A stretch of 64,000 nucleotides of DNA from Owenia fusiformis (taxonomy: Eukaryota; Annelida; Polychaeta; Sabellida; Oweniidae), in NCBI GenBank assembly GCA_903813345.2, contig CAIIXF020000012.1:15742020-15806019 (forward strand), written 5' to 3'. The notes beneath the pieces were generated by a model, which did no database searches, had not been told where the DNA came from, and saw nothing but the letters and a program-made list of their open reading frames with translations. The stretch's first letter is position 1; each line of letters opens with the position of its first letter. Shown in pieces: positions 16,321-57,097 of the stretch. A program made the translations under genes and the position numbers.

Positions 16321-17177
16321 CTAGACACTACTACACAACTTTGGCAAGACATGAGGAAACAGATTGCACATAAAAGTATGTGTCCTTGTGTAGTTCATTC
16401 CAAGTACATCGTGCGTTTTTATTGTGATGATAATATTTTCAGTGTCATCTGGTGAAGATGTGGCTTTGTGAATCGTCAAGTCATTTCCATTACTCCCAGG
16501 CTCGTTACTGTCTTTGTACCTCGTGTCATGATCTTGTCCTTAAAATATAAACAAATGGATAAATGGATATGCAAAAAGTATTATTTCATGAATATCTCAC
16601 AAGTGATAGTTGTAACAGTGGTATTGATGATTTGAGTATTTATCCGTTGGTTATCAGCTGATCAAGCGTGTAAAAAGGTAAGGCCTAATTACTTGTTCTT
16701 ATGTTAATAACACCTAGTTGTTTCTCATTTAACCATAGGTTTAAGGTCGACAGAAAGATAATAATGTTGTTTTACCATTTATTGTAACTGATAAATCAGA
16801 CTAAGAGTCATCTGTCTATCGATCAAGATCCTTTGAAATAAATCAATGCATATAAATCGTCGACGAGTCAACTTTTAAACGAATTTGAAAAGTTAATTTT
16901 CTATAACGTTTTAGCATTTAATCAAATTACCTTTTACAATTAAAACAACTGCAACAAGTGAAACCGTAGCGACGACAGCGGCAATCACTACTAGAATGAC
17001 ACACCTTTTCATTCTCCAAGACCTTTTCTGATTCATCATGGAATTCTTGCCATGGGCGTCACAAACCTTGTCTGCCACCTTGGGCTCCAGGTGATTGCCG
17101 AAAGCAAGACAATCGATAACTTGTCCATTTGCCTCATTGTTCACTTGTCGATACTCATATTTTTCGGTGTTACTCAT
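16321..17177 (-). CDS. Short type II membrane protein C (154 aa, two exons)
   Basis: Exon 1 17177-16931 (donor GTAATT) and exon 2 16538-16321 (acceptor ATTTTAAG) join in phase 1 to give 154 codons plus stop. The protein starts MSNTEKYEYRQV, has a polar tail with a basic cluster (QKRSWRMKR), a membrane segment at about residues 58-80 and a 73-residue ectodomain ending FMCNLFPHVLPKLCSSV. One NYT glycosylation sequon precedes the first ectodomain cysteine. The second exon is too fragmented by short frames to be obvious, but it aligns with the last exons at 37981-38201 and 46738-46955. It is divergently paired with TIR gene 1 across a 585-bp intergenic region. Function is unknown; the pairing suggests co-expression. 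Confidence 0.78.
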
Positions 17178-17762
17178 CGTTCAACCTCAGTCACCCGAAT
17201 GAAAAACAGAAATACAAGAAAAGTTGTTCGTTTTGTATCCTAGATACATACATAGACGAACAAAGTCGTCAAGCATTTTAAATATTTAGTTTAATCATAC
17301 GAAACAGTACATTATATATTGTCTAGTGTCATATGAAACTGAAATCCGAAACTTCTTGAAGAGATAGACAAGATCTTAACGATTTCAAGAACAACAAATA
17401 TAAGTTTTGTATTTCGATTTCATATTATAATATCACAACTGATTTCAACGTTGTGTATAAGATACAATTGTATCTTTGAATTCAATACCAAATCGGAGAC
17501 AAACACCAGCTTCAAATCAAGACACCGAAGAAAAATAATAATGTCAAGTGTTTTTGTAGTTTAAGAGCTAACTGTAGTACAAGGTACACGACAAACTAGG
17601 GTCATCCACATGTCATGAGAGTTTCTTGAAATGGAAGTTTCGAGTTTCGGTTTCAAAAGCTACTGGAACTCATTCATATAGCTATGCGTTTCTGTTATTT
17701 TTCAAATAACATCACAGATATTACCTATGATCATGTATAATACACAAGCAAGAGATTTATGA
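17178..17762. promoter_or_regulatory. Head-to-head promoter 1 with inverted IRF-like motif pair
   Basis: This lies between the start codons of short membrane gene C (minus) and TIR-1 (plus). GAAACTGAAATCCGAAAC is at 17335-17352. In the opposite orientation, GTTTCGAGTTTCGGTTTC is at 17637-17654. GAAANNGAAA is the core of IRF/interferon-response sites. The same inverted pair with similar spacing occurs at 38.97/39.24 kb and 49.46/49.75 kb. Confidence 0.6.
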
Positions 17763-18851
17763 ATGGAAGGTATGTATTTTCTATTTTATACGGCTTATAC
17801 AGGTTTATATGGCTTGCATATATGCAGAACACGTAAGTAACGATTTTTAAACATTTTCAATTTCAATTCAATCCAAAGTAATTTTATTTATTTATCATAC
17901 AGAGAGAAGCAGGCTACGACACCCAGAGGGGTGTAAAACTGGCCACGCAACTTGTGTATAATCATAATCATAATTTTAAAGCATTTTACGATTCTATAAT
18001 AATTGAATGTAACACTTTTTCCTAGCTTCCGATGAAAATTTTTCCTTTTCACAAAGAAATGGCCCATTTTCGTCCCTAAATCTCAGTCATGGCTCATTGA
18101 TTTCTTATTTTCAATTATCCCGGCCCATTGAATAACCTTCATATCATATCATGTAAGTGTAATCGATTGTAATTGTTTATATAAGAAATAAATTGATAAC
18201 ATGAAAAAAATCTCAACAGCATATTATTTTTAATAAATTTCTGATGTTCCCTAATTTTTTTGTACACCCTGTATTTCTGCTAATTTTTTAAAATCTTACG
18301 TTTGCATTCCTTTTTCGACACTTGAACTCAGCTTGAAAATGTTTATCAAAAATTAATACTGAAACCATCCGTTTTCGGGCTAAAGTCATACATTATGGTA
18401 AGACGAAAATCACTCTACAATTTCAGAGCACGCAATGGATTACGGATTTTGGATGATGTGTAACGGCAAGTCGCCGATCTCATACGATAGGGCGACATAT
18501 ATCCTGAAACTTCTCGAAGATAGGGGTCATCGAGGATACTTCACACAACGCGATTCCAAAGATAAAGACTCATTAACGGAAATCTCAGAAGCAGTCGATA
18601 AATGTCAATACATTCTTATCGTCTTTGACGAGGACTTTAAAAAGGACAACTTCAGTATGACGACGCTAGAGAAGGTCTTCAAGAAGCTCATATATACACG
18701 GCGACTTCATCGGATTATTCCCCTAGTAATTGGGATTAAAAGAGACAAAGTAGTCCCAAGTTATGTTCCTAACTTCTGCCTTGAATTCTGTGATAACTGG
18801 AAATCAGATGATAGGCAATTTACCCGACTTGAGAACACTTTGCGGTCGTGA
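17763..18851 (+). CDS. TIR-domain protein 1
   Basis: The main exon is 18427-18851 (acceptor TTTCAG). ATG lies 8 bases into it and gives 138 residues. A tiny first exon is likely at 17763-17769 (ATGGAAG, donor GTATGT): joined in phase 1 it adds MEEHA in frame before MDYGFW. The product is essentially a lone TIR domain. The first strand is DYGFWMMCN; a box-2-like QRDSKDKDS follows at 38-46; then come a helix (LTEISEAVDK), a buried strand (YILIVFDEDF), an acidic residue E79 in SMTTLEKVF where catalytic TIR NADases have their glutamate, and a late strand IIPLVIGIKRD. TIR domains act as signalling adaptors or NAD-cleaving enzymes; which applies here is undetermined. It is over 90% identical in protein to TIR-3. 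Confidence 0.76.
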
Positions 18852-19324: not shown

Positions 19325-20520
19325 AACAGCAACTCCACGGAGTAGCAAATCCCACCGAACAAAACATGTTTTGATAAAAAGCGGCCATATAAAATTTGAG
19401 CAAAATCCATCCACTGGTATTTGAATATTATCAAAGGTTATGTTTTTATGAAACATGGTTGCCATTTTGAAATTCAGCTGTCATATTTAGGTTTCTTCTT
19501 TAGCAGAGCTCCTATGTCCCAAGGCATCAGCATGAAGAATTTAATCAAAATCCGTCAACTGGTACTTGATTTATCTAGGATTACATGTTTAATGAAAAAT
19601 GGCAGAGATTTCGATAAATAGCAGTCACCTTGAAAATTTCTCTCAAGCAGAGCTCCTTTATCTCTAGGCATCAGTATACAAAATTTGAAGTCAATCCGTC
19701 CAATGGTATTTGAGTTATCAAAGATTACCCTTTTATGAAAAATGGAAGCCATTTTTAAATTCAGCTGACGCCTTTGAAATTTCTTCTGAAGCAGATCTCC
19801 CTTTTCCCTAAAAATTGGCATATAAAATTGGAACCAAATCCATCCACTGGTATTTGAGTTATCAATGACTACGTTTTTTACGAAAAATGGCGGCCATTTT
19901 GAAATTCAGTGGCCATCTTGAAAATGTCTTCCAGAGCAGAACTTCTTTATCTCTAGGCATCAGCATATAGAATTTGAACCAAATCTATCAACTGGTATTT
20001 GAGTTATCAAAGGTAACGTTACGTTGAAAAATGACGGCCATTTTGAAATTAGTGGCCATCTTGAAAATCCCTTCTGGAGCAGAGCTCCTATGTACCTAGG
20101 CATCAGCATGTAAATTTTGAACCAAATCCATTGAATGGTATTTGAGTTAACAAAGATAACGTTTTTTACGAAAAATGGCCGCCATTTTAAAATTTGGTGG
20201 CCATCTTGTAAATGTCTTCTTGAGCAAGGCTCTTTTGTACCCAGGCAACAGCATATAAAATTTGAACCAAATTCATTCACTAGTATTTGAGTTATCAAAG
20301 ATTATATTTTTTCCGAAAAATGGCATCCATTTTGAATTTAGCGGCCATATTGAAAATTTCTTCTCGAGCGGAGGTCCTACATCCATAAGGCATACGACTA
20401 TAAAATTTGAATGGAATCCGTCGACCGGTATTTGAGTTATAGCCCGGACACACAAACGGACGGACGAACGGACGGACGGACGGCTTTTCTTTATCCCCCT
20501 CGAACTTCGTTCGGTGGGAA
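19325..20520. repeat. ~144-bp tandem repeat, about eight units
   Basis: The word GGTATTTGAGTTATCAAAG or a close variant recurs at about 19416, 19561, 19705, 19849, 19994, 20137, 20282 and 20427, a period of 143-145 bp. Each unit includes AAAATGGCGGCCATTTTGAA and AGCAGAGCTCC. The array ends in a GGAC/GGACGGACGG run and TTCGTTCGGTGGG. It lies within a region that is contiguous downstream of TIR-3 (AAACATAATACGTCAAACAA at 40549), so it appears to have entered the TIR-1 3' flank. Confidence 0.82.
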
Positions 20521-20600
20521 AATAATACGTCAAAAAATAAATTGTCACCTGACAGAAATTATCAATCTGCTTTTGTTTTGTATTGCGAAATACTCAGTTA

Positions 20601-21162: not shown

Positions 21163-21864
21163 TATAAATCATTCGTAAAAATAAAAACATGGGTCAATGG
21201 GAAACCGATACTACGATCGAAATTGAAATAGAGATTCTAGTTCTAGAAACACGTCCAATTTTACAAGTGCATTGTACCAAACAGGACAATAGCTGTTTAC
21301 GCAAGCACTATGAAACCACAAGCGAAACAGATACATTTATTTCAGGTAAAAATAGTATTTTGATTATGATATGTCTTGTACATGAAGAGGGATAAATGTT
21401 GGCAAGTATCCAGTGTCAATTGCGTTCAAAAAATATCAGATTCTTGTATTGCTGTAACCGATTTTTGATTGAAAAACGGACAAAACGATAACCTATAGTT
21501 ATATACAGGGCGGGCCAAAAAAGCAATACCCGAGTAAGATGAATATCATATGATATACGTTAAACCATGTTATGTATTTTAAATAGGGATCGAAACCAGC
21601 CATATTTTTCTCCTGATGACCATTGTGAATTGTTGTGTTTTATGGATTATGATGACGGCTTTGCGAACGGATGTTGACCCTTTGAATTGCCTATGTACTT
21701 CGAGACTGGATTTTATCTATCCCACATCATTTGAGACTGCATACTCTATCTTTTATGAGTACTAGTATCTACAACTATTTTTGATGTTATGAGTATTGAT
21801 CACGTTCTCAACTTTTCAGTTACATTCTCAACTAACCCCCTAAGGTCTGTAATATGTCATCTAT

Positions 21865-22068: not shown

Positions 22069-22370
22069 ATGTAAATCACTAAACGGAATATTGAATTTGA
22101 GAATTTGGCTATCAATTTCTTTCAATTTTTCTTCAACATGTATTGTAATGACTTCAGTATGAATGAAATGTCCCTTGGTGTTCTGGTCCTGGATTGTGAT
22201 ATTGGTTCTCGATTGGAGGGGGGAGGGGGATGTTGGACATTGTTTCTTTTCACATTAGATCATGGTTTTGGGATGTATACGGTCTGCTTTTCTTATGACA
22301 GATTTACACTTACAGTTTGTATATACAGTATATAAGTTGTGATATGAAATAATCAGTTGCTGTCTCATAT

Positions 22371-22801
22371 GAAATTGAAATTCGAAACCTTTTGACGAGA
22401 TAAACAAACATCTTAATGATTTCAAGAACACCAAGTACATGTTTAGAATTCCAGTTTCATATAAGATCACAATTGATTAGCTTGTATAATGTCATGTGTA
22501 AGTTGCATAGATCTATGTTATTCGAATACCATATCAGAGATAACCAAATCAAGAGACCAACTAATTGTTATAATGACAAGTGCACAGTGGTCTTTATAGT
22601 TAACTTATAAAACAAGTGACCTGAGGTTAGTCTCAGATGTGACATACAAGGGTAGTCCAAAGATTCTTGAAAGTATGTATCGGTTTCGGTATCGTATGAT
22701 ACCGCAATACTCTATACAGTATATGTAGCTAGGCATTTATAGTCTTTCATTTAACATTTGATAATATAAGAATACCTGCCATTGAATATAATTTATGAAA
22801 T
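22371..22801. promoter_or_regulatory. TIR-2 promoter with IRF-like motif
   Basis: GAAATTGAAATTCGAAAC at 22371-22388, preceded by CATAT, matches the upstream motif of the other cassettes. A weaker inverted partner, GGTTTCGGTATCG, is at 22683-22695, about 310 bp away. No short membrane gene is recognisable on the minus strand to the left, so this cassette appears to have lost its partner. Confidence 0.5.
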
Positions 22802-25354
22802 ATGATGATGAAAGGTACGTATCTTATATTTTGTATCCTGTATGCTTGCAATAAAATGCTTAAAATAAATTAAGAATGATTCAGTTTAATCAGTTAGGAT
22901 ATATTATTTTTGCGGGGAATTTAGCGCTGATTCTATCTGACACGTCGCAAAAAGGTTCGTGCGTGAATTGTAACTAATTGTTACACATTTTCGCTCTTTA
23001 ACATGATAAAATGTGACGTTTTTGAGAAAAATGTGCACATGGAAATTCTTTCATCCTCCACTACCCTCTAAATCTCAAAATATTTAGGATGAATAACTCT
23101 GATATCATAAATATATTAGCAAAGGGTTAGGAGCATTAAAAACACGAGAGATTTGTTAATTCTAGGGGAAAAGAACAAATGCATTGCTATGTTTGAAAAT
23201 AGGTGAATGGCGAAAATTAGGTCTATTTTTATGTCAGACAACAATTATTGTTTAGATGATGATAATATATTCCATAAGTAAACAATTATAACGTACACAT
23301 ATATACAATGTAATAATATACACTTAAGTTCCATAACTACCGCGCAAATGTGATTAGGCCATATTTGCACTACAAAAATTAGCAAAAAGGTCGCTGTCGA
23401 ATTTTCTATTTTTCATACTATATGACGTCACAATATGGAATGCATATGAGAAATCATCTTTTTGAAATACCACTCCCGTCTTCCTTTATCAATACGAAAA
23501 TTATTTATAATTGTGAAATATTGTTTTAGTTATGAGCGTTTAAAGATGAAAAAATACTCAAATCGAGCGTGTCGACATCGGATATTTGACAGATTTTTAG
23601 GAAAATAATTCTCTTTTAATAAAAACGAACAAGAGATGTGAACGGAGTGTACTCAATTCAAAAAAGTCATAGAGGTAGCTTTAAAATGATATATTATTTT
23701 ATTTAGAATATTATCTTATATTACGGAGAATTAAAGATACATTGGAGAGGTTAAGCTTTGCATATATAATCGAAACTGAACCTGTACGTATCACTGGCCA
23801 TATACAAATTCATGTAGCCTTCTCATATAAATAGCCGTTCAAATCCAGTGTTTGTTTAGACTACACCATAGCGTGTAATGATTCTATAGTATGTCATTGA
23901 TGCGGTTTTATAGCTGGTTTTCTGATACATATTTTAAACGAGCTCGTTTCGTAAGATTTTTGGTGCTAAATCATGCATGACATACATTATCGTGTTCAGC
24001 AAGAATTCAACTGTGCATCGAAATCAAAATTGACAGCATAGTGTTCAATAGACACGAGTAAAATGGTTCCCGTTGACCCAACGTCAAATTTCAAATCTCC
24101 CGTTCTAAACCCGAAACTCTGAAGCTGAAAGAGTATCTGAAGTAGACTAAGCGCGCATAAAACTATGAGCGCTCGATACATTCCTTTGTTAATTTTTGTA
24201 CTTTGCGTTCACGGTTACGTTGTGAAAAACATCGTTAGCTTAACCTCTCCATTAAAGGCAGAATCAGATCTGTAGGGTTGACAAAGTTACAAGCAACATG
24301 TACTTGTACAATTGACCTGACAATCTATTCCTTACAATCTCAAATACAATGTCTCCCAAAAGATTCCTGATATGTTATAAATGGGTGAAGCTATTATGGA
24401 TTCAAAGTGCAAAAATGGGTGAAAATGATTAAATTCTCCCAAAATAATAAGAATGGTAACCACTCTTATAGAAAAATAATACATAATTGTAAAAATCTTT
24501 AGTTTCCCTGAAATAAAGTGTGCACTTTGGGGACTTTTAGAAAATAGACATGACAAGGAATGACATGAGCCAGAAATATTCTCAAATTGAAACAATTTTT
24601 TGTTTGCCTGCCCGCTAGATCTGATTCTCTCTTTAATGCGACACTGTAAAACACACGTGCGCGACCTTTTTGCGACGTGTCTCTCCGTTCATTCCATTTT
24701 TTCTTCTTAGTTTTCAAAGAATTCTTCACCTTCATAAACGTAATTATTTTGCCACTGAATCTTACATTTATTAATCTCTCATTTCAACTTCTTTTCATAT
24801 TCTTTTTAATGAATTTCAAATGCTTTCCCCAATATTAAACTTTCAGAATTAAATAGAAATATCATTTATTTTTTCTGTTTTAAAATGATTCCAATCTTGT
24901 TACTGTAACTATAACGTTCATATTTACAGACCAGTTAATGGATTACGATTTTTTGGTGATGTGTAACGGCAAGTCGTCAACCTCGTGCGATAAGGCGGCC
25001 TATATTCAAAAACTTCTCGAAGATAGGGGTCGTCGAGGAAACTTCACTCATCGCGATTCCAAAGACACAGACTCATTAACGGAAATCCCAGAAGCAGTCG
25101 ACAAATGTAAATACATTCTTACAGTATTTGACGAGGACTTTAAAAAAGACAACTGCAGTATGAAAACGCTGGAGAAGGTCTTTAAGAAGCTCATATATAC
25201 ACGGCAGCTTCATCGGTTTATTCCCTTAGTAATTGGGGTTAAAAGAGACAAAGTAGTCCCAAGTTATGTTCCTAACTTCTGCGTAGAATTCGGTGAGAAC
25301 TGGAAGTCAGATGTTACGCAATTTAACCGTCTTGAGAACACCTTGCGGTCCTGA
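22802..25354 (+). CDS. TIR-domain protein 2
   Basis: The main exon 24930-25354 (acceptor ATTTACAG) codes 138 residues from MDYDFLVMC. A candidate first exon at 22802-22814 (three consecutive ATGs, then AAAG; donor GTACGT) joins in the same phase as in TIR-1 and would add a few residues ending KDQL before MDYDF. All TIR landmarks are kept: HRDSKDTDS (box-2-like), ILTVFDEDF, a glutamate in SMKTLEKVF and FIPLVIGVKRD. Substitutions relative to TIR-1 and TIR-3 make it the most diverged intact copy. It has no membrane segment or signal peptide, so it is expected in the cytosol. The first exon is less certain than the second. Confidence 0.72.
23996..24181 (-). other. Possible small secreted peptide, unverified
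   Basis: A 61-codon frame starting MYRALIVLCALSLLQILFQL looks like a signal peptide followed by about 40 polar residues. It lies inside the long first intron of TIR-2 on the opposite strand. No splice sites or paralogue were found, and the flanks (GGAGAGGTTAAGC near 23746 and its inverse near 24236) suggest it may be inside a repeat. It may well be chance. Confidence 0.22.
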
Positions 25355-25933
25355 CCTAAGACACTAGAATGACTTAAAAGCTGTAGAATCCTTCAGGAGG
25401 AGAAGAAAGAAGCGGAATGTAGAACTTTCAAGCAGGATTTATGACTTTGAATCGAGGTAGTTTCTGAAGTATGGCGAAGCTCATCTGCGACTGGAAACTG
25501 GACTGAACCATCCATCAGTGCCACTTCAGAGAAAATTGACGCGTGTATCTTGATGTGAGTACATGATGAAAAAAATAAATTACTAATTAATATTACATAA
25601 ATTAACATCTATTTATTTTCGTTTTAGTTCGCACTTCAACACAGCATTCAATCTTTAAGATCACTTGTCAATGACATTCAAGTTTTTGTTTATGACACAG
25701 TCACGAATTGTATTCAAAATGGCCGCCGTCAATATATAATTTATTTTATATTTAAGGTATTCATTAAACAAGTGATCATGACATCAACAAAGAATCAAAT
25801 ATTGGATCTTGTTATTTTGTAAAATTCCTCGTATTTCGAACAATTCCCAGTTTAAAATTAATTTTGAAATCCTTCACTTTTTGGATTTGAAGTCTCTCAA
25901 ATTGCCCAAAATTGTATAATTCCAGAACGTGCA

Positions 25934-26115
25934 CTGACGGAAATCTCGGAAGCAGTCGACAAATGTAAATACATTCTATATATGGTCTTTGACGGGCAGC
26001 TTCATCAACATCCCTTGGTGATTTGAGTCAATTTGTAAACTGCCTGGAATTCGGTGATGACTGGAAAACAGATGCTACGCAATATTCCCGACTTCAGAAT
26101 ACCTTGAGATCGTGA
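25934..26115 (+). pseudogene. TIR-domain gene fragment
   Basis: Two islands match the TIR exons: the helix block (GACGGAAATCTCGGAAGCAG and onward to ACATTCT) and the C-terminal block (TGGAATTCGGTGATGACTGG onward to TTGAGATCGTGA). Most of the stretch between DEDFKK and PNFC is deleted and the frame is broken. It has no splice acceptor and initiator of the conserved kind. It is a dead duplicate lying 580 bp after TIR-2. Confidence 0.8.
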
Positions 26116-27185: not shown

Positions 27186-27189
27186 GCAA

Positions 27190-28620: not shown

Positions 28621-28644
28621 TCAAAAATTGATAAAGTTTCATAT

Positions 28645-33850: not shown

Positions 33851-34879
33851 CAATAAAATGACCGCGATGGAACCGAAAACCGGGCCGAAAACTAAGGTTG
33901 GTGCATTATGTTCTACTACTGTGAATCAATGAAAGGATGAACGATTTATGTAACCCTACTATCACACCAAACTAGTTCTCACTACGTTCTCGAAAACAGG
34001 CTTCAACTGTGTACGAACGGACTGGACGTACTTAGAACCGTTCGGGGTATATTTACAAACTTCATCGAACGTACTTGAACGGTTTGGTCCTCTAGAACCT
34101 AGAACATGCTCAAAATGCTCTCGTGGTCGTCACGTTCTACAATTGACCTTTTGCGATCAGAATTCAGGTATTTTGTTTATTGATATTGTTGTCATATATT
34201 TCTTTTTATTGGTGTGACATCATATAAAAATGATATAAGACATGATGGAATCACGAAATGGCGGACATGTGATAGTTTTGAGCTTAAAATACCTAATTAT
34301 TTTAGACATATTTCCCGACCACAGCCAGAATTAGCCCGTTTTACGACTTTTTCGTACGACTGGAAAGAACGGTTGAGAACTAGTTTGTCGTGATAGGGGG
34401 GGTTACATTTATATGTAGTCGTATTGGATTTGCTGCCAAATAAGTTCTTCTATTCTCCAATGGGTTCATATGGTTCAAACCGGTGAACTAGTTTCGCATG
34501 TGATAATGTAGATATTACAATATTATTAACATCTACTAAACTGAACAAAAGTAAACTTCTATTTCATTATTTAGATTACAATACCTTTTTTAAGAAACCG
34601 TTAACATAAGTTGCCAATACATTAATGGGAGTCTTAAATATGTTTAAAACTAATCAAGGGAGTACTAAAACCAACCGAAAGATGATTCCAAAGTGTCTGA
34701 TCAAATAACTAATTATAAATATAAGATAAAATGTTTGTTTTTATTATTTCATTTTGTGGTTGCAAGTTTCCTTTGAGGTCAGAGGCAGACCCCTGATTAC
34801 TAAATTTAAGTGGCTGATATTTTTATATTATATATTTTTTTATATCATATTTCTATATTTCTCTCTCGTTTCATAACAG

Positions 34880-36299
34880 GACTATCGAAGAAATGTGCCA
34901 TCCTTACAAACTTGTGAAAAGAGCATCTAGAGCACTTTCCTTCCCAAAAAAATATAGACTCACTCAATTTGTCGAAAGAAGTTACGATCGAGCAAAAATC
35001 AACATCCCTGAAAAACTACAAACAAGTCACCTGGAGCACAACGCAAGCTTTGTTAAAGGCCTTGTCGATAAAGTAGGAGATCGCAACCCTATTTTCAAAG
35101 TTCGGAAAATACTCGGAACCGGAAGCTGCTATCAAAATACTAAAATAATAAGACCAGATGAGACGGACTATCTCTTGGTACTGAGTATATCAAACCGTGT
35201 GAAGACGGTTTGGGAATGGGCAAATGTATATTCGATTGAAATATGTGATAAATCTCTGCTGTTTAAACTAGAACAACATGGAATAAGTGAAGACGTCAAT
35301 GGGAAGAATTGTTGTAATAGTTTACATCTAGTAAATGAATTCAAAAATCTTGTGAATGGATGTCTAAATGATCACCAAGATGTGCTCGGAGTATCGTACA
35401 AGGGAGATGATATACTATCTTGGAAACATACCCCTGCTTCTTGGGACGCATTCAAAAAACACAATCATCTACAACAAATATATGGTGAGACACTCTCGAT
35501 TAAGAGTAAATGGCGTAGAGATATACGTGACCCAACTCTTGAGAAGGATCAAGTCGTACTGGATAGAATGAATCATGGCCCCAGTGTAAGAGTTCGAATC
35601 GGAGGACCTCTCTGTACCACAGATCTAGACTTGTGTCTCTGCATTGATTCACCACAAATAGAAAATTCTAGTGAAAGGTATGTTGCAGTACCTGTTTCAA
35701 AACTCGGCGAACCGTATTGGACTCTTTCGTCTTATGAGGATCCAATCAAGCTTAGGCTAGATGAAGATCACAGAAAGATATTAATGGTTTTGAAGGACTT
35801 GTTTTCTGAATGTAAGAATACTCCGAATCCGGGGAATTTAGCAGACTCTCATAATCTGAAAACATTTGTCCTTCACCACCAGGAACGATGTCTGAAGAGA
35901 CCAGCTGAAGAGAGGTGCCTGGGAAATTGTCTGGACGATATAGTGCATCATATGTTTGAGAAGTACAACATGAGAATAGATGAGAATAATATCTCAGTAA
36001 CTAATACACCTAGTAGTCTATCTGACATGATCTTTCCAGGGGTGCCTCTACGCATAAGTGATAGCGATGAATATAGTTCGGGTCTTCCTGTTTTGTTCCT
36101 GTACGCTTTGATGCAGCTTGTGAAGATGGACTCTCCAATCTCGGGACACAAAATCCATTCTATTGATCGCTGGTTGATCATCAATGAAGTAAACAAATAC
36201 ATAATAGAGAAAAGACATAAGTGGATTTTACCATTAAGTGCAATGGAACATATTAAAGAGAGCTTAATTAAATATAAACTTAGATCAGCTATTAGTTAG
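34880..36299 (+). CDS. cGAS-like receptor / Mab-21 nucleotidyltransferase
   Basis: A single large coding exon follows a splice acceptor (CATAACAG). ATG at 34893 opens 468 codons, and the frame is also open upstream to the acceptor, so extra N-terminal residues are possible. GTGSCYQNTKII (Gly77-Ser78) is followed by E90-T-D92, the GS plus E-x-D nucleotidyltransferase signature. The third acidic residue is D246 (or D244) in TTDLDLCLCID. The Mab-21 helical half follows, with NLKTFVLHHQERC at about 321-333, where the family has its conserved HLKT block. Metazoan cGLRs sense foreign RNA or DNA and make a cyclic dinucleotide for STING. The canonical cGAS zinc ribbon (H-x5-CC-x6-C) is not seen; H328/H329, C333, C342 and C346 form a differently spaced cluster. 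The family call is strong, the ligand unknown. Intact catalysis is inference. Confidence 0.85.
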
Positions 36300-37980: not shown

Positions 37981-38807
37981 CTAGGCACTACTACAAAGCT
38001 TTGGTAAGACATGCGGAAACACTTTGCACATAAAATGACGTGTCCTTGTATAGTTCATTACATGTTCATCAGGCGTCTTCATTGTTGCTTGTATTACGAT
38101 ACTGTTTCTTATGTCATCTGTTGTGGCTTTTTTTATTAGCAAATAATCGTCATTATTTTCAGGCTTGATCTCATTTGTATAGTTTGTGTAGGGATCTTGT
38201 TCTTGAAATAGAAAAGCATATTATAAAGAAATGTAAAAAATCAAGTTCCAATCCATGAGTCAACTCGTGAGTGATCTCTCTAATAGTGGTATTGATAGTT
38301 TCGACAATCATAATCATCTGGTCGAGATATTCTAAAGTCTAATGCTCTATTTAATAACACTAATAGTTTTCATTCTACCATACATTTTTATATATACTGA
38401 CAAACCAGACTGCCATCTTTCCATCGACTAATCCATTAATTGCAATTGCCTTTACATTTTTCACACCAAAGAATATTTATATACGGATGATGCACGTGAA
38501 ATATGTTTAACTTTTTCGAGATTTTTACCATTCGATCACCTTTAAGCATTAATTTAATAATCGAAATACCTCTTATAATCAGAAGAGCTGAAACAAATGC
38601 AGCAGCAACGACAGCAATAATCACGACTAGTAAGACGCACACGTTTTCATTCCAAACCGACTCATCCTGGGATTCTTCCCGATGTCTTTACAAACCTTGC
38701 TCGGCATCTGAGGCGTTAGGCGATCGTCAAAAGTATGGTCAGTATGTAGTTTGATAATTTTCCTCACTCTGCACTCGTTTATAGGAATACTCTTCGGTGT
38801 TACTCAT
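37981..38807 (-). pseudogene. Short type II membrane protein D, broken first exon
   Basis: By alignment with gene C, exon 1 is 38807-38570 and exon 2 is 38201-37981 (acceptor TTTCAAG). The start MSNTEEYSYKRV matches MSNTEKYEYRQV, but a stop follows after 22 codons. One extra base lies near 38725, and two extra bases precede the membrane segment (after the MKTC codons). Thus the tail, the middle and the membrane helix are in different frames. Exon 2 is intact and ends HFMCKVFPHVLPKLCSSA, with an NYT sequon. The donor has drifted to GTATTT. The intact exon 2 implies recent inactivation, a use from another promoter, or an assembly error. It faces TIR-3 head to head. Confidence 0.7.
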
Positions 38808-39373
38808 TTCCAGCTGCAGTTGCTCGAATAAAAAAAAAATACAAAAATGTTGTTCTTTTTTATGCCTCACATATAGATAAACAAAGTATTTTACCATATT
38901 GAACACTTACATTTAAATGATGCAAAACAGTACATTGGGAAATATATATACAGTATGTTTTGTCATATGAAACTGAAATTCGAAACTGAAATCAGAAAAG
39001 ATATAATAAGTCTAAAGTCTTCATGATTATAAGAAGCAAGAGCAACTTTTGAAGTCCTGTGTCATATGTATTCTAGTATTTTGTATACGATGCACATGTT
39101 GTTCCTATGGTACTCGAGTACTGTACCATATCAGAGACAGATACTGTACTAGCATCTTCAACGTCTTTGGTCGTAGACCAAATCGAGAGACCGGCGGGGT
39201 AAAATGATAACGATACATGCCCAAAATGTCTTGATATGTTCGAGTTTCGGTTTCGTATGATAGTGATACTAAAGAATACAGTATACACTAATCTAGTAGC
39301 TAAGGAGTATCTGCTATTTTTAAAATATCATTTGGGAAGAAGGTATATCATCTTACAGCAAACGAAATTGATA
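38808..39373. promoter_or_regulatory. Head-to-head promoter 2 with inverted IRF-like motif pair
   Basis: GAAACTGAAATTCGAAAC at 38969-38986, followed directly by another TGAAAT, is preceded by CATAT. The inverted partner CGAGTTTCGGTTTCG is at 39241-39255. Spacing and orientation match promoter 1. It lies between broken gene D (minus) and TIR-3 (plus). Confidence 0.6.
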
Positions 39374-40349
39374 ATGGAAGATAAATTTCTTATTTTATAA
39401 AGCATATTTATAAAGGGCTTGCATATGTACAACACGTAAGTTTATTATTAATATTTTAAAGCTAAAATAAGAAATAAATGAATTAAACTAAAAAAAAATC
39501 TAGATTGATCTTATTAATATTTGGGTATATCGGGTTGGTTGATCTTCGTACTTTTTATATTTAATTAAACAGCTTTCGATCAAACCTTCCTTTCCATAAA
39601 GAAATAACCAGATTTCTCCCCCAAATATTACGTTCGTAGTTTTCTTATTTCTATTTCTGTCAAAATTGATTAAAAGTAAAACTTGCTGTTAAATAAATCT
39701 AATGTTTTTTACCATTTGACCAATCTAGCTGATGATGTTACGCTTATATCACGCCAACTCTTTCTCCTTTGTATTCTTGTAAAACATTCCCCTTCTTCTA
39801 GAGCTGAACGAGGGTTCTTGAAGAATCATATGAAATTATTATTGAAACCAACTGTTCTGGCTGAACCCATACACATTGGTAAACTGTTCCTTTCATTTTG
39901 ACGAAAATAATATAACATTTACAGAACACCTAATGGATTACGACTTTTGGATGATGTGCAACAACAAGTCGTCGATTTCATGTAATAAGGCAACCTATAT
40001 CCTAAAACTTCTTGAAGATAGGGGTCTTCGAGGATACCTCACTCATCGCGATTCCAAAGACAAAGACTCATTAACGGAAATCTCAGAAGCAGTCGATAAA
40101 TGTCAATACATTCTTATCGTCTTTGACGAGGACTTTAAAAAGGACAACTTCAGTATGAAGACGCTAGAGAAGGTCTTCAAGAAGCTCATATATACACGGC
40201 AACTTCATCGGATTATTCCCCTAGTAATTGGGGTTAAAAGAGACAAAGTAGTCCCAAGTTATGTTTCTAACTTCTGCCTTGAATTCTGTGATAACTGGAA
40301 ACCAGATGATAGGCAATTTACACGACTTGAGAACACCTTGCGGTCGTGA
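39374..40349 (+). CDS. TIR-domain protein 3
   Basis: The main exon is 39925-40349 (acceptor ATTTACAG); ATG at 39933 gives 139 residues starting MDYDFWMMCNNK. It carries the same TIR landmarks as TIR-1 (HRDSKDKDS, ILIVFDEDF, the glutamate in SMKTLEKVF, IIPLVIGVKRD) and differs from it at only a few positions. By homology, exon 1 would be 39374-39380 (ATGGAAG), but the following bases are ATAAAT instead of GT, so that donor looks lost. Another first exon ending at a GTAAGT near 39437 is an alternative. The frame is also open from the acceptor back to 39876. It is convergent with long receptor 2. Confidence 0.74.
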
Positions 40350-41690: not shown

Positions 41691-41799
41691 CACCCCTCGT
41701 ACATATCGAGTTCTTATCAGCTTAATGAACTATAATTGATTTTTCCTTTTGCATTAAAAACTTTAGTTATTACTGTTCAAATATGGTAAATAATATATT

Positions 41800-44144
41800 T
41801 TATTTTTTATCAAGAGTGACAAAATACGATGTTGTGTCTTTTGCGTACAAGGATTTACTTGCATGACCTTTACAAATGCTAGCATAAGGCTGTAATGCAT
41901 AGACATCATATCCATGTGTCCCATCCGTAGCTTCGTACCGAAAGTCATAGTCACCATCTTTATATCTGTGACAATTCCTCAGCTCACAGAGAACAACAGT
42001 TGCGTTACTAAAATAGTTAATGACATTGTAGCCTTTTTCACACGCATGTAGCATGCATTGTCGTAAATCCCGGGCAGTCGAGACTTTCTCAAAACGACTT
42101 GGGTTACAATTGGACTTCTGACAGGATGGTGCCATACGTCTCAGTGTAAACATGTCCGATTTGCAATTTGGAGTACCAGGGTGAGGGACAATCCACCATT
42201 TCGCAAATACCCCATCGCCATAACATTTGTTGTCATAGAATTTCCAATATGTGCCTTCGTGGTTTGAATTACATTTATAGGCAAGATATTTATTATCCCC
42301 GTTTATGTGAATAAATGTATTTGATCCCGATTCGCAAAAGTCATTTGGTATTTCTTGGTTTGTCGATTCTAACAGCTCTGCATTGAAATAACCAGGATGT
42401 CCACATTGTCCTAGAAGAAGCACCGGGAATTCGACTGGTTGAGTTTTAAGTAAATTCTTACAAGATTTGATCTTATGAGACAGACTATATACCACTGAAT
42501 GTCCATCTTCATTTTGTCGTAGATCGAATACATAATCGTTCGCAGTGATATCCCATCCACAGTGTTGTGTTTCACATTCCATTCCTCTATAAGATCCATT
42601 GACAATAAAGTTGAAAGTATTTCCTTTATCCATGCACGCTTTGTCCATACATTCTGCTAAGCTCTCAACGATAGTATTTGAAATAGTGAAACACGTCGCC
42701 CGAACATTCGCCACTGTTCTGTTCATGAAATGTGAGTTATGACACGGTTTTGCATAACTATGTGGCCGTGCATATGTCCTCCCCGAACTCGTCGCGGCAA
42801 TCGTCCATGTGTACGCCCAGTCTAATCCATTCAAATCCGATTCACATTTATACGCTGCGCACTCCACCTTTGGATCGTAGTATACAACATTGGCGTTTGA
42901 CTTACATGCAAGGTTGAAGCAATGCTCTCTGGAGTAAAACAACTGCTCTGTCAGAATCCCAATAACCATTCGCTCACAGCTTGGACGAATTAGATCGCTG
43001 CCATTAACTTGATCATTGCGTCGGACCAGCAAGTAGTCGCCAGATGGACATGTATCATCTGTAACTAGAAAATTATATGCTTCATAAGTAAGTCAAACAT
43101 TTATGAAAACATACCATCTTGACCAAAGGAAGTTTTTTATCATCTTATACATGCATGTTTACAATAATTGCCTCTCATTTAAAATTTACCGCCAACGTCA
43201 TAAAAAGCCAAATAATTGTAACATCTAAAGAGTATTCTCTCTCTTCATTGGACTCAGTAAAGATAAAGGTCACATGCATAGGTCAGGGTCACCTACAAGC
43301 CTAGAAGTCACACCATGGACTGCCTAATGATAAAGAAGCTAACGTTTGAACATATTACAAAATGACATTTTGTGAAAAACGGACCTTTAGTGCTGCCAAG
43401 GTACCAGTGCAGTGAATATGATTTTACTATACATAGCTTCAGTTTTTCGATCCGAATTCAATAGATATATTATTATAATGGAAAAACTTACGTAGGAATG
43501 ACGTCGTGTTGGTAGCATTTGTTCCAGTATTATCAGCCATGTTATTCTTTACCAAGCAATTGTTAACGTCGATGTTGTTCGTTCCGAAAATTTCTATTTT
43601 ATCAATTGTGCTTAGGTTTGTTGCACGCAAGCACTCGCGCAGGGTGCTTTGTGGGGACTCTGGATAACCACACCCATTGTTACTTTTTTCAATGAAATGT
43701 GGACATTGTGAACCTGCATACAAATCAATTTATCAAATCAATTTATTCCATCTAATTTAAAAACTTAACTTAATGAGTATTGTCGCTGTGACTGTTAAAT
43801 CAGAATACAAAGAATATATGGACGTCTATTTGTGAAACAATTCAAAAACCACTCCGTTAGGAATAAAGACAACAAAATAGGCAAAATGATTCGACTTCTT
43901 TTTTCAAAATAGTTTAAAGGTATTAAAGGTTACCTCTAGTCAACGAGGCTGTGATAAAAACTATTCCCATTAACACTGCAGTAACTGTACACGCCAAAAT
44001 AACGGCAACATACAATGTGCGGCGTGTTACTGTATTCGTTTTTTTCTCATGTTCTTCCAGAAGAGGGCTTCCGGTATCAGATATTTGCTCATTTCTCTTT
44101 CCGATGTCACTCCCGTCATCTGTTCTATCTCCTTTTCCTGGCAT
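41800..44144 (-). CDS. Long Cys-rich type II membrane receptor 2 (565 aa, three exons)
   Basis: Exons 44144-43934, 43713-43492 and 43064-41800 join in phase 1 at both junctions, total length divisible by three. Start MPGKGD is chosen because it matches MPGEND of gene A; an in-frame ATG lies 14 codons upstream. The tail is ~43 residues with a basic TRR end, and the membrane segment is at about 44-68. Exon 2 gives a Cys-bearing stalk with N-glycosylation sequons. Exon 3 (residue 145 on) opens TCPSGDYLLVRR. It carries PAN/apple-like modules at about 174-218, 269-338 and 459-536, with a separate Cys-rich segment at about 365-445 (FCESGSNTFIHINGD, WKFYDNKC). Unlike receptors 1 and 3, this tail has no GYL-x-P or ITIM-type tyrosine. 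It is convergent with TIR-3. The role as a surface receptor is inferred. Confidence 0.8.
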
Positions 44145-46737: not shown

Positions 46738-49337
46738 CTAGACATTACTACATAGCTTTAGTAAGACATGGGGAAACACTTTACACATAAAATGATATGT
46801 CCTTGTGTAGTTTATTCCGAATTCATCATGCGTTTGAATTGTTATAATACTATTGTCTGAGTCATCTCTTGAAGGCGTGGCGTTTTGAATTGTTAAGTCA
46901 TCGTCATCATTTTCAGACTCGTTATTGTCCTTGTACTTTGTGTCATAATCTTGCCCTTAAAATAAGAAAGAAGAATGGTGAAGTTCACTTTGAATAACAA
47001 TCGAGTTTTGTTTTTTTGCATTACTGCCAAGTGATAACTCTGACAGTAGTGTTGATGGTTAGGATGATGAGCTGATCAAGATGCAAAAATGCAAAGTTTA
47101 GGCCTCACGTTCTTTGGGTTTTATTACACACTAATTAGGTTCTCATTTTACCATAGACAAAAGGCTGAAAGAAATATTGCTAGCCAATGTTTTTTCTATA
47201 TTCTAAATTGTTGACAAATTGGACTGCTATTTCTTTCCATTGACCAAGAACCTGTAAATTTTACATGTCAAAGAATCAATACTGTGTGTGAAACATCATG
47301 TTTACTGGTCTTCTTACATCATGGCATTTGAATATGAATGGATGATACGAGTCATATTCACAAGTACAACCATCTTAAGGAAAGCAAACACCAAATATCC
47401 CAATATATGATCTTCAGTGTAAAGAAGCAATCTAGAACCCCTCACCCACAATTCAGGAACCATTATTACAATCGGATACCACAAGACCACGGGTCATTTC
47501 ATTAGTATCAAAAATCATTATAATGTATATTAAAAATAGAATTAAAATTCTAATACGATACGTATGATACGTGACGTTGCAATAGCTAGAACAATTGATT
47601 TACTGGTCGGAGTATGTGTGACTGCTAAAATTAATAAATGCAAATAGTTGTGTTTCTTCTCTGTTATGACATTAGAATCTTAACAAAGACCTCGATTTTA
47701 TGATTTATGTCAAATATATGACGCGATTTAGATCTTTTATCAATGAACAGAATACAATTTTTGGTCATATCGGTCGAAATGTTGAGACATGCGCAGAGCT
47801 CTATTTAGTGATATTTTCATTTCAAATATGGCGGCCAATCCGATGTCTGACGACCCTTACAAAGAATCTAGGCAGTGTACAATTTTTGGTCATATCGGTC
47901 GAAATGTTGAGACATGCGCAGAGCTCTATTTAGTGATATTTTCATTTCAAATATGGCGGCCAATCCGATGTCTGACGACCCTTACAAAGAATCTAGGCAG
48001 TGTACAATTTTTGGTCATATCGGTCGAAATGTTGAGACATGCGCAGAGCTCTATTTAGTGATATTTTCATTTCAAATATGGCGGCCAATCCGATGTCTGA
48101 CGACCCTTACAAAGAATCTAGGCAGTGTGCATTTTTACCTCCTGTGAAATGACAAGTGGAATTTAGTAGTTGTTTTGTGTTTTATTATCATTCTGCATCG
48201 TAATTCTATGTGATGTGGTGTTGAAATGTCAGCAGAAATACATATCCATACGATAATCGAGTGAATCAGATAACAGATTTTTCGAAAACCCGTCTCGTGC
48301 TAAGAGTGTAAAAACTTGTATTAACATGCTCATAAGTGCCAATGTGCACATCAATGTCAAGCTAAATCAATGTTGTGTCTAAAACACGTACCTGATCTAC
48401 TCAAAACAGCTTGTCATTCACGTATATACACGCTTAGTAAACACGGCGAAATGATCTGAATCTTGGAATTTCGTTCGAGAGCTAGTTATGTTTGCTCCGG
48501 TCTTCGTCATAAGTGTTCATCAGACTTCACGCATGCTCATGAGAAAAACCATCAACCAATAACGTTTATAAATCAATTTTGCGCATGCACCTTACAACGG
48601 TAAAGAAATTCGTATTTATAAACGAACCAATTTGAGATAAACCGATGTCAGTCGGAGAAATCTGACGATCTATGAAAGTCACTTCAAAAAATCAAATGCG
48701 GACTGACGGCGTATTCTACTATGCTTGGATCTAAGATTTTCAGTATAGATAATGTCTTTTATGATCTTTCGAATGAGGTAAGTCTCTAGTTCGAAAGACG
48801 TATCAACTTGACCAAAAGTTGAGTTTTGACGAAAAATTTTAACATGCGCAGAAGTCCCATTTTCGTTGTAACATATTGTCTGATATATTACGCCACAAGT
48901 CATAAAATCTCGGTCTTTATCAAATAAAAACCAAAAATCTTGACACCATCGTAGATACTTTACACTAGGAGTCATACAGATAACATTCAGTCTAAAATTA
49001 TGTGGGACAAATTGAATCTAGTCTCGAAGTTCATTAAGAGTATTGCAAATGGTCAACATTCATCCATGTAGCCGAGCGTGCTTTTTATAATCATTTCTAC
49101 CACCGTTCAGTATATAATCAAATTACCTTTTATAATCAAAACAACTGCTACAAGTGATAACGCAGCAACGACAGCGACGATCGCTACTAGAACTACGCAC
49201 TTTTTATTCATCTCGAGATTCTTGCCGCGGGCTTCACAAAATTTGTTTTGTATCTTAGGGGCTTCTCCATCGATGTTGTGCTCATTTTTATGATCCTGTA
49301 CATGTTGATAAACACATTTCCTAGTGTCATTCGTCAT
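46738..49337 (-). CDS. Short type II membrane protein E (142 aa, two exons)
   Basis: Exon 1 49337-49127 (donor GTAATT) and exon 2 46955-46738 (acceptor ATTTTAAG) join in phase 1 to a length divisible by three. Start MTNDTRKCVYQHV is chosen by alignment with MSNTEKYEYRQV; an in-frame ATG 13 codons upstream exists. The tail ends in a basic NKK, and the membrane segment is at about 47-66 (VVLVAIVAVVAALSLVAVVL). The ectodomain is rich in Asp/Glu, has an NYT sequon and ends HFMCKVFPHVLLKLCSNV, the family signature. The 2.2-kb intron is much larger than in gene C and holds a 125-bp tandem repeat. Head-to-head position relative to decayed TIR-4 is preserved but transposons now separate them. Confidence 0.76.
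47754..48128. repeat. Three near-perfect 125-bp tandem copies
   Basis: Units begin at 47754, 47879 and 48004 with ACAATTTTTGGTCATATCGG and include AAATATGGCGGCCAATCCGA. Copies appear identical apart from the final bases. They lie in the intron of short gene E. Such identity points to very recent amplification or an assembly artefact. Confidence 0.9.
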
Positions 49338-49828
49338 TTCAACGAGAGTTACTCGCACAAATTTTTTTAGAAACAAAAACGTAAATGAGGTGCCTCGGAA
49401 TTAGAGCTGTTCTAAGGCCGAGGACCAGAAACAATGGTGTAAGAATCAGTTGCGATCTCATATGAAACTGAAACTCGAAAATTCTTGAAACGAACAAACC
49501 TCTTCATAATTTTGAGTCACAAGAACAAAATTTTTCGAATTCTAGTGTTATATCGCAAATGATTCAAATAGTATGTAGACGATGTAGGTGCAGGATCTAT
49601 GTAATTTGGATACGATATCAGAGGCAAATGTATATTAATTTCTTATACCAACTCAAGACTGAAAAATAGCACTTTTTAGAGCTAAATAACTTAAATACAT
49701 TACAGGGCATATGGAAGTCACCCAAAACGTCTTGAAAGTTTGGGGTTTCGGTTTCGAAAGATACTGATACTAATACATACAAATAGGTGTACCTGTTTTT
49801 TCAAATATCATGCGAGAAGAATATATAG
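49338..49828. promoter_or_regulatory. Head-to-head promoter 3 with inverted IRF-like motif pair
   Basis: GAAACTGAAACTCGAAAA at 49464-49481, preceded by CATAT, and the inverted GTTTCGGTTTCGAAAG at 49745-49760. The distance of the first motif to the start of gene E (127 bp) resembles that for genes C (158 bp) and D (162 bp). The plus-strand side is cut off by the transposon at 49831. Confidence 0.58.
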
Positions 49829-49830
49829 TA

Positions 49831-54449: not shown

Positions 54450-56808
54450 GCTGTAAATGTGTCTTCTTAGAATAGGAAAAATACAATTATATGTTGTCTA
54501 GCTACATTGTAGACATTGCCGAGTCAAAATATACATTCCTGAAAGTCCATTGGTGTACTGTCGTCTTGCAATACTGTACTGCAGATTAGGTCAAAAAGTG
54601 CAATGTTGCTACATTGTAGTCTTTGCTAAAAGTTATTCATATCACATTCACTTTAGTCTTCCAAAGATTACTGTCAAGTTCGGAAATTGCCATTATGGTG
54701 TTCAGCAAGACTAAGTCAATAATTGAGGCATGTTTCATTTCCCAATGTTGGAAAGATATCTCCATGGAACAGATAAGGAAGGTCATAAGTTTGTGGAAGA
54801 AAAGGCTTCGAGTAGTGTGTAGTGAGGATGGAGGGCCCATCGATCATTTATTTTAAAGATCTAATAGCAAAGGTTTTGCAAAAATGAATCAATGTAGTAA
54901 AAAACAAATGTATGTATGATGAAGAAATAAATATACAATGAAAAAAATAGATACGTGTTTGTAATATTGGTATTAACTTATGATCAAAAAGTGTCACTAT
55001 CTCTTTCATTTTTCAACAAATATAGGCTCACGTGACATGTGACGCGGGGCAGGTAATTTTGATCTATCGTAGACCATATCAGTATCAAATTGCCGATATT
55101 GCAACCTCGTCTTGCGAGGCCATTTTGATTTGAAACATGATTGTCAAAATAAAGCTGATCACACCCACTTTCATAGTTATCAATGAATCATTTACTACGA
55201 CTACTATATTCATTTAGGAGGCGTGTAAAGCTAACCAATCAGAAAGACAATTGTTCCATACATGGCAGTTCATTAACATATTCAGTGTTTACTACTGCTT
55301 TTCGCGTCATGACAACACGAGTAGTAACCAATCAAGATGCCGTATTTTATCATGCGAGGTTAGAGTGACATATGCACACGACATGTAGTCTGAACTGATG
55401 CGATGTTGAACAATTTCTTCTCGGAATTTGTCCTGAGAAATCAGCAGTTCTAAATTAAGGTAGGATCTGCCATTTCTTCCTGTACAAGTTATAACTTATC
55501 TCTAATGAATACTAAAGTTTTGAATGAAGATATGAAGCATACGTTTAAAAACGAAGCGATTAATTTGACGATCTGATTCTGCAATTTGCAATGGCCAATT
55601 TAACGCAAGTCTGCGTGTATTTGACAAGAGATAGCGCCAAGTCTTGTATCTAAATGCTTGTAGCCTTACTCAAAAACAAGATCCATATTTTCTAAATTTG
55701 ATAACTTTGCAGAAAACCTGTTTTCATAACCTGTTTTCCGTGTCAAAATTCAAACTGAGTAATAGGATCGCTGGGATCCTCCGTCAATGACAACGGGTCG
55801 TAGTACTTGTCTAAAGTCCCCATATCTGCCCTCTTACTGGTTTACTTGGACACATTTTCCCCTGTATTGTCCCCAGTCAAATTACACCCTCACACCGATT
55901 TATAATAGCCATTTCCCAGAACCCGGGAATCAGAATCGCTGATGTTTGCCATATTGAACATGTTCGGAAATATGTACTGTAATATCTGTATTGCCTGCTA
56001 CGCGTAATGGTCACGTGACTAGCGCGATACAGGAAAAATGGTGAATTTCGAAACAACAATTTTTGGGCACTTTTATTACAAATTTCAGGTATCTATAGGT
56101 GTTTGTGGTATAAAACATCATCCCCAGACATAAATGAACATCCAAACTACACATTTCATTAAGTTTTGGAGCCTTTTTTGCTCTTAAATTAACATCTTTA
56201 ACTTTCAAGGTAAGACGTCATAACTTTATAGCCCGGTATTTCATTTTTTGGACCATGCTTTTTATTTTTAACGTTTTGTTGTGAATACAGAAGGTAAGGC
56301 ATTGAAACTTTTAGGTCATAGAGGCAATAGGATGAAGTTATAATACTGAAAGTTTCACTTATATACTGTTTATAGTTTCTGAGATAGCAACTCTCAAAGT
56401 TCGGGACATTTTTTTATCCACCCGATATATTTTTCCCGATAAAATCACCCCCTTCATAAACTCACGTTATTTAATTTATTTTTTCTTCACTACCTATTTT
56501 TTAATGATTTTCAAATGTTTTTCAAGATTTCCGATACCCAACTGCCAATTATAATCAAAAGCACACCCTGTTTTCAAAGCTCCTGTTTTAAACTCCCTAA
56601 ATCATTCTTCCAATGATATCCTGTTGGTTTTTGTGATTATTCATTTTGTTTATCTCCAATGTGCATTCCTCTTTCAATCACACAGCTAGGCAAAAGGGTT
56701 TTTGTATGGCCCATTAATTTTGAAATTCTTCTTTTTTAACTGAAGTCATATAGTATTTTTTTGTTGTTTATCTCGTTCATTTTGTCGAAAACCATTTTAA
56801 AATTTCAG
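54450..56808. other. Former TIR-4 upstream region with a transposase scrap
   Basis: At 54710-54856 the translation ISMEQIRKVISLWKKRLRVV followed by CSEDGGPIDHLF resembles the C-terminal tail of mariner/IS630-type transposases (W-x2-R...C....G...EHL). At 56228, GCCCGGTATTTCATTTTTTG resembles one end of the 49831 element family. No first exon for the TIR-4 copy was identified. Confidence 0.4.
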
Positions 56809-57097
56809 AGCGCGAAATGGATTATGACTTCTGGGTGATGTGTAACGAGAAGTCGCCAGTTTCATGCGAAAAGGCGAACTACATCCTCACGCTCCTCGAA
56901 GAGAAGAGTCTTCGAGGATACTTCACACCACCGTCTTTAAGATTCGGTTTATCCTCTTAGTGATTGGGGTCAAAAGACACACAGTAGTTTACAGCTATAT
57001 TCCTAACTTTTGCCTGGAATTCTGTCGTGATAACTGGGAAACAGATGATAGGCAATTTTTCCGACTAGAGAACACCTTACGGTCGTGCGCGACCTAA
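56809..57097 (+). pseudogene. TIR-domain gene 4, internally deleted
   Basis: The splice acceptor (AATTTCAG), the 8-base spacer and ATG at 56817 are conserved, and the first ~38 codons (MDYDFWVMCNEKS...RGYFTP) align with TIR-1. Then about 150 bp are missing, including the box-2-like motif and the conserved glutamate, and the frame shifts to a stop near 56958. The C-terminal part (LVIGVKR, FCLEFCRDNWETDDRQF, RLENTLRS) continues in another frame. It is convergent with long receptor 3, the same arrangement as TIR-3 with long receptor 2. Confidence 0.85.

What the first reader, a model, noticed from the sequence alone, without database searches (positions are those of the whole stretch)
16321..57097. 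Repeated head-to-head cassette: small type II membrane gene plus lone TIR gene
Seen: short membrane genes C, D and E (minus) each lie just left of a plus-strand TIR gene (TIR-1, TIR-3, decayed TIR-4), with ~0.5 kb between starts where no transposon intervenes. TIR-2 keeps the promoter half. Inference: a divergent gene pair was duplicated as a unit at least three, probably four, times and kept its shared promoter, which suggests the two products work together, for example a membrane sensor and a cytosolic TIR effector or adaptor. I know of no described animal system with this pairing.
Basis: partly seen in the sequence, partly recalled or inferred. Interest (0 to 1): 0.86.

Follow-up and report, generated by a model that had tools for sequence, protein, structure and literature searches.

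The report
IRF-switched immune gene pair, annelid
In a marine worm, a small membrane-protein gene and a lone TIR immune-signalling gene sit back to back around a shared promoter that carries interferon-response-type DNA switches; this unit was copied several times, but only one copy still has both genes intact.

Summary
The window matches the annelid Owenia fusiformis. The head-to-head arrangement is real. Membrane genes C, D and E and TIR genes share one divergent promoter type; a fourth copy (TIR-2) keeps the promoter without a membrane gene. The promoters carry facing IRF-E/ISRE-like elements: the window has 6 exact IRF-E matches against 0.1±0.3 expected, 4 of the 6 in the C, D and E promoters; TIR-2's are degenerate. 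The first 111 coding bases of the TIR exons are about equally diverged in all copies, as expected if a unit was duplicated; the rest of the TIR-1/TIR-3 exon was later homogenised.

Corrections: only C/TIR-1 is an intact pair. D is frameshifted, TIR-4 lacks its middle, TIR-2 has no partner. Start codons lie 1.1-1.3 kb apart. The short genes belong to a type II family whose long members carry a ~420-aa cysteine-rich ectodomain; 2 of 3 long genes in the window have ITIM-like tails. Only 3 of 7 family genes in the window adjoin a TIR.

Best reading: an IRF-induced divergent immune cassette, now decaying. Co-regulation is supported by sequence only; physical partnership is not shown. New variant of a known kind, moderate interest.

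The parts
16321..17177 (-). Short type II membrane gene C, 154 aa; exon 1 16931-17177, exon 2 16324-16538 plus stop; open
   Evidence: Spliced model; annotated partial Owenia protein P0004 has the same exon 1-exon 2 junction and differs from the model in its last residue
17178..17834 (.). Divergent promoter C/TIR-1 with facing IRF-E-like elements at 17335-17346 (+, one mismatch) and 17643-17654 (-, exact)
18435..18851 (+). TIR-1, 138 aa, open; last part (from about 18549) nearly identical to TIR-3
   Evidence: Pfam TIR_2 29.3 bits, cut-off 28
22345..22750 (.). Divergent promoter of TIR-2, both blocks present but elements degenerate (22371 +, GAAATTGAAA; 22682 -, one mismatch to IRF-E); no membrane gene found beside it
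24938..25354 (+). TIR-2, 138 aa, open
   Evidence: (TIR_2 20.3 bits, below cut-off 28)
25931..26112 (+). TIR fragment (two pieces of a further copy)
   Evidence: tblastn
37981..38807 (-). Short membrane gene D, disrupted in exon 1 (38570-38807); exon 2 (37984-38201) open
   Evidence: Three-frame reading
38808..39435 (.). Divergent promoter D/TIR-3 with IRF-E-like elements at 38969 and 38982 (+, one mismatch each) and 39243-39254 (-, exact)
39933..40349 (+). TIR-3, 138 aa, open; model with TIR fold
   Evidence: (TIR_2 27.7 bits, just below 28)
46738..49337 (-). Short membrane gene E, 142 aa; exon 1 49127-49337, exon 2 46741-46955 plus stop; open
49338..49811 (.). Promoter of E with exact IRF-E at 49464-49475 (+) and 49744-49755 (-); cut off from TIR-4 by inverted-repeat insertions
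56817..57085 (+). TIR-4, decayed: about codons 38-92 missing, halves in different frames
939..1992 (-). Gene A, short member of the same type II family (166 aa); no TIR neighbour found in the window
6440..9938 (-). Gene B, long member with Cys-rich ectodomain exon and ITIM-like VRYATI; no TIR neighbour found in the window
   Evidence: (P0008, small junction differences)
41800..44144 (-). Gene F, long member (565 aa); no TIR neighbour found in the window
   Evidence: P0006
57904..60199 (-). Gene G, long member (605 aa model) with ITIM-like LRYSTV; no TIR in the 3.8 kb to the window end

Best explanation
It is an immune gene cassette under a bidirectional, IRF-type promoter. On pathogen sensing, an IRF would bind the facing IRF-E/ISRE elements and switch on both strands: a cytosolic lone-TIR protein, and a short type II membrane protein that keeps the tail, transmembrane segment and stalk plan of a local receptor-like family but not its large ectodomain. 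The likeliest role is an inducible signalling module: the TIR as scaffold or adaptor in a Toll/IRF-type pathway, the short membrane protein as a subunit or decoy that adjusts complexes of the long receptors. The cassette was multiplied to about four copies; TIR-1 and TIR-3 later exchanged sequence, and most copies lost one half. Shown by sequence: arrangement, shared promoter, element enrichment, homogenised tract, broken copies, family relation. Inferred: IRF binding, co-induction, adaptor role. Unproven: any contact between the two products.
Against: Only 1 of 4 copies has both genes open. 4 of 7 family genes lack a TIR neighbour in the window. The four promoters are paralogous, so their elements are not independent events. 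2 of the 6 exact elements (15529, 15535) lie beside no recognised cassette gene. TIR-2's elements are degenerate. IRF binding and transcription untested; no annotated record of TIR-1 to -3 was seen in the protein search. The region 71-76 next to the glutamate position is the least confident part of the TIR model.
Confidence: 0.55

Rival explanations
1. Shared regulation only: two independent interferon-stimulated-like genes happen to share a bidirectional promoter; the promoter was duplicated with whatever flanked it, and the products do not act together.
For: Each half persists without an intact partner (T2, T3, E); T1/T3 homogenised apart from C/D (synonymous distance 0.15 against 0.62; Fisher p 9e-5).
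Against: The one pair with both genes open keeps the whole arrangement; a vertebrate interferon-responsive divergent pair encodes partners (titles).
Confidence: 0.32
2. A decaying array: the copies are mostly relics of a once useful locus, shuffled by repeats, and the remaining open frames are no longer used as a pair.
For: Broken D and T4, TIR fragment at 25931, missing partner of T2, inverted-repeat and satellite insertions.
Against: Three open TIR genes and two open short membrane genes with dN/dS below 1; 4 exact IRF-E elements kept in three promoters that are otherwise about 60-62% alike; gene C is annotated, as a partial protein.
Confidence: 0.13

Closest known systems
Interferon-responsive bidirectional pair BAL1/BBAP (PARP9/DTX3L), vertebrates; title seen in a reference list, complex in titles
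   Same: Two immune genes read in opposite directions from one interferon-responsive promoter.
   Different: Unrelated proteins; there the products are known to form a complex, here not tested; here the unit is multiplied.
Hydra split Toll-type system (HyLRR-2 and membrane TIR protein HyTRR-1); passages of PMC8609888, PMC6043800, PMC7654579
   Same: Receptor part and TIR part are encoded by separate genes.
   Different: In Hydra the TIR protein itself spans the membrane and the partner has LRRs; here the TIR is free, the partner has no LRR, and joint action is not shown.
TIR-only proteins of corals and other invertebrates (passages)
   Same: Single TIR domain without LRR.
   Different: No shared divergent promoter with a membrane gene appears in the passages read.
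Type II ITIM receptors of the vertebrate NK complex (listing only; details recalled)
   Same: Type II topology, clustered paralogues, ITIM-like motif in the tail of some long members.
   Different: Ectodomain shows no Pfam or PDB sequence match; no C-type lectin domain found; the short genes lack the motif.
Head-to-head plant TIR-NLR pairs such as RPS4/RRS1 (gene arrangement recalled; their TIR structures appear)
   Same: Divergent immune gene pair involving TIR proteins, thought to be sensor plus executor.
   Different: Both plant partners are TIR-NLRs; no homology to these proteins seen beyond the TIR fold.

Membership tests
TIR-only (TLR-like) proteins | TIR fold | tested here: met
TIR-only (TLR-like) proteins | No LRR or transmembrane segment in the same protein | tested here: met
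   138-aa frame is all TIR in Pfam and in the model; a leader exon is inferred to be non-coding because a conserved ATG follows the acceptor
NADase TIR (SARM1-type) | Catalytic glutamate in helix C | tested here: inconclusive
   Thr opposite the plant glutamate in a weak alignment (RPV1, E 0.67); residues 71-76 are poorly modelled
Interferon/IRF-type bidirectional immune promoter | IRF-E/ISRE elements between divergent genes, above chance | tested here: met
   6 exact against 0.1±0.3 in 60 Markov controls, 4 of 6 in the C, D and E promoters; consensus recalled
Interferon/IRF-type bidirectional immune promoter | Joint induction of both genes | not testable with these tools
   No expression data held
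Split Toll-type receptor (Hydra type) | LRR ectodomain protein plus membrane TIR protein | tested here: not met
   The TIR frame has no membrane segment and the short membrane models are not LRR-bearing by inspection; the short proteins were not themselves run against Pfam
ITIM-bearing type II receptor | [IVLS]xYxx[IVL] in the cytosolic tail | tested here: not met
   For the short genes C, E and A there is no match; met only for long members B (VRYATI), P0009 (VRYATI) and G (LRYSTV; G's second match VKYVSL abuts its membrane segment); not in F or P0010

The most novel reading that the evidence does not exclude
An annelid 'paired receptor' complex: long type II receptors with ITIM-like tails act as the inhibitory arm, while short ectodomain-less siblings, each made from the same IRF-driven promoter as a lone TIR, are the activating arm that brings the TIR to the same receptors. 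This would be an invertebrate counterpart of NK-complex signalling that uses TIR instead of ITAM, with a constant TIR kept alike by gene conversion and diverging membrane halves.
Probability: 0.1. Interest if true: 0.85.

Novelty: new variant of a known kind. Interest (0 to 1): 0.5.

Why it matters
Most knowledge of interferon-type promoters comes from vertebrates. A divergent immune pair with facing IRF-E elements in an annelid would give a small, directly testable module for what IRFs control outside vertebrates, and it ties a lone TIR to a membrane receptor-like family for which my searches found only Owenia proteins. The homogenised TIR tract beside diverging membrane halves is also a clear case for studying how an immune array keeps one half constant.

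Tried and rejected

Idea that the short genes are simply 5' exons of long genes: rejected for C, D and E. Each exon 2 ends in a stop after FPHVLxKLC, and tblastn found the ectodomain at only three places in the window, none between C, D or E and the next family gene downstream. It was right for three other loci: the type II exons at 9.9, 44.1 and 60.2 kb belong to long genes; annotated proteins P0008 and P0006 bear out two of the three.

Idea that 92% identity of TIR-1 and TIR-3 dates the cassette duplication: rejected, because most of the identity lies in a tract with a sharp edge.

Control against over-reading low identities: with a free global aligner, shuffled sequences of this composition reach 63-68% of aligned columns, so the TIR-1/TIR-3 intron (69.1% against 67.6±2.1%) is not distinguishable from unrelated DNA, while the C/D promoter core (71.6 against 65.5±1.7%), C/D exons (71.9 and 72.8 against 63-64%) and C/D intron (73.3 against 66.0±2.4%) are.

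Idea that the ectodomain is a known domain: no Pfam family above cut-off and no PDB sequence match. The AlphaFold2 model is poor (mean pLDDT 46.4), so I did not search with it; repeated helix-plus-strand units in it are a lead only.

First splice models for B and F had wrong exon edges; re-examined and against P0008 and P0006.

Relic cassette at 15.5 kb: overlapping exact IRF-E matches with weak similarity to the promoters (best E 0.002) and no gene remnant found; left open.

A second element, CAAAACGAAACT, lies upstream of long genes B and F in a 72-column alignment, 78% alike (E 1.8e-10); not pursued.

Literature: listings of 10 searches showed no paper on this pairing. The library lacks most subscription journals; I saw passages of seven papers and otherwise listings.
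Full report
What the window is. A protein search with TIR-3 returned two annotated Owenia fusiformis proteins (P0001, 74% identical, on a 36.7-Mb contig; P0003, 50%, on another) and a window-encoded entry, P0002: 3 hits at E up to 0.001 among 7 candidates. Searches with the short membrane proteins (2 hits, both Owenia; only the 7994 candidates sharing most words were scored) and with the ectodomain (8 hits among 2043 candidates, 7 named Owenia and one without a source) agree. I take the window to be from this annelid (lineage). No eukaryote genome could be searched; the nine requests for the own genome did not complete.

The membrane genes. All seven lie on the minus strand and have an intron of phase 1 after an exon encoding tail and transmembrane segment (exon edges). 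Short members A, C, D and E end in a stalk exon with the pattern FxCxxxPHxLxxLC (also P0005). Long members B, F and G splice on into an exon of about 420 cysteine-rich residues; annotated proteins P0006 and P0008 bear out F and B, the latter with small junction differences. P0004 bears out the first splice of C and differs in its last residue. The ectodomain shows no Pfam family above cut-off and no PDB sequence match; in Owenia it also occurs in proteins that look type I (P0011, P0013; by eye). Exon 1 of short gene A is 95% identical over 42 residues to that of long paralogue P0010, and A's exon 2 is 80% identical to that of short paralogue P0005, so exon 1 has moved between short and long forms. 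B, P0009 and G have an ITIM-like tail motif; F, P0010, A, P0005, C and E do not, C and E having only YxxV. Gene D is frame-disrupted in exon 1.

The promoter. Self-BLAST links the intergenic DNA of C/TIR-1, D/TIR-3, E and TIR-2, and an alignment shows two blocks conserved well above the rest. Block 1 reads TCATATGAAAYTGAAAYYCGAAA on the plus strand; block 2 contains GTTTCGGT, the reverse of an ACCGAAAC core. The longest run invariant in all four, 10 columns, was reached in 0.08% of 20000 column shuffles. In 60 first-order Markov controls the window should hold 0.1±0.3 exact IRF-E matches; it holds 6, of which 4 lie in the C, D and E promoters and 2 overlap at 15529-15546 beside no recognised gene. 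With one mismatch there are 12 against 4.7±2.3: 8 in the four promoters, the pair at 15529/15535, and single ones at 21201 and 23772. The looser GAAANNGAAA gives 23 against 6.2±2.5 in 100 controls. As the promoters are paralogous, their elements are not independent. The IRF-E consensus is recalled, not from a call. That a lophotrochozoan IRF can use ISREs is shown for oyster IRF2 and IRF8 in human cells (PMC5557890, passages only).

History. Over the core, the four promoters are 60-66% identical in all six comparisons. The first 111 coding bases of the TIR exon differ by 18, 18 and 20 among TIR-1 to -3 and by 24-27 against TIR-4. This star-like pattern fits copies made at about the same time. 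TIR-1 and TIR-3, counted from 33 bases before the ATG, differ by 29 of 147 before codon 38 and by 8 of 312 after it (0 of 1000 permutations as extreme). Within coding sequence from base 150 to 414 they differ by 7 of 264, against 28 and 27 of 264 for TIR-1/TIR-2 and TIR-2/TIR-3, so the low value is special to this pair and not only a slower 3' part. The 3' flank is also alike (89.8%). Their synonymous distance (0.15) is a quarter of that of the neighbouring membrane halves (C-D 0.62 over the 101 codons of D readable in one frame; Fisher p 9e-5 on rounded counts). Gene conversion or a second local duplication is the simplest cause. TIR-2 is also closer to TIR-1 and TIR-3 (0.31, 0.33) than the membrane halves are to each other (0.62-0.68), which may reflect older exchange.

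What it does. The promoter evidence supports joint, IRF-type induction. Whether the products meet is unknown. Against a tight partnership: one intact pair of four, orphan TIRs, and four of seven membrane paralogues without a TIR neighbour (tblastn found TIR matches at five places in the window at E below 0.001). For it: the one pair with two open genes keeps the whole arrangement, and a divergent interferon-responsive pair, PARP9/DTX3L, is known in vertebrates to form a complex (titles). I put 0.55 on an IRF-induced cassette and a good deal less on direct binding.

Known or new. TIR-only proteins, split Toll-type systems in Hydra (passages) and interferon-responsive bidirectional pairs are each known. 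The combination, in an annelid, with this membrane family, was not in the listings of ten library searches; that library is incomplete. I rate it a new variant of a known kind.

Noticed in passing
34818-36299 (+): Open single-exon frame, about 467 aa from its likely ATG, resembling cGAS-like receptors: 24 PDB sequences at E up to 1, all named cGAS, cGAS-like receptor 1 or Mab-21 protein, best E 0.019; the GS...ExD stretch is kept. No Pfam family at E up to 1. It lies between TIR-2 and TIR-3.
   Followed up: partly
6440-9938, 57904-60199 (-): Long type II proteins with ITIM-like tail motifs (VRYATI, LRYSTV) and a cysteine-rich ectodomain found in 7 named proteins, all Owenia, some of which look type I.
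   Followed up: partly
939-1992 (-): Exon 1 of short gene A is 95% identical over 42 residues to exon 1 of long paralogue P0010, while its exon 2 is 80% identical to that of short paralogue P0005: exon shuffling between short and long forms.
   Followed up: partly
15529-15546 (+): Overlapping exact IRF-E matches (GAAACTGAAACCGAAAGC) 0.8 kb beyond the end of gene C, with no recognised gene beside them; possibly a relic promoter.
   Followed up: partly
10881, 45186, 3023, 29107: CAAAACGAAACT recurs upstream of long genes B and F (72 columns, 78% alike) and near gene A, and at 29107 away from any recognised gene.
   Followed up: no
19386-20440; 47753-48136: Tandem arrays of about 145-bp and 125-bp units, the second nearly perfect (99% matches, 3.1 copies), the latter inside the intron of gene E.
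   Followed up: no
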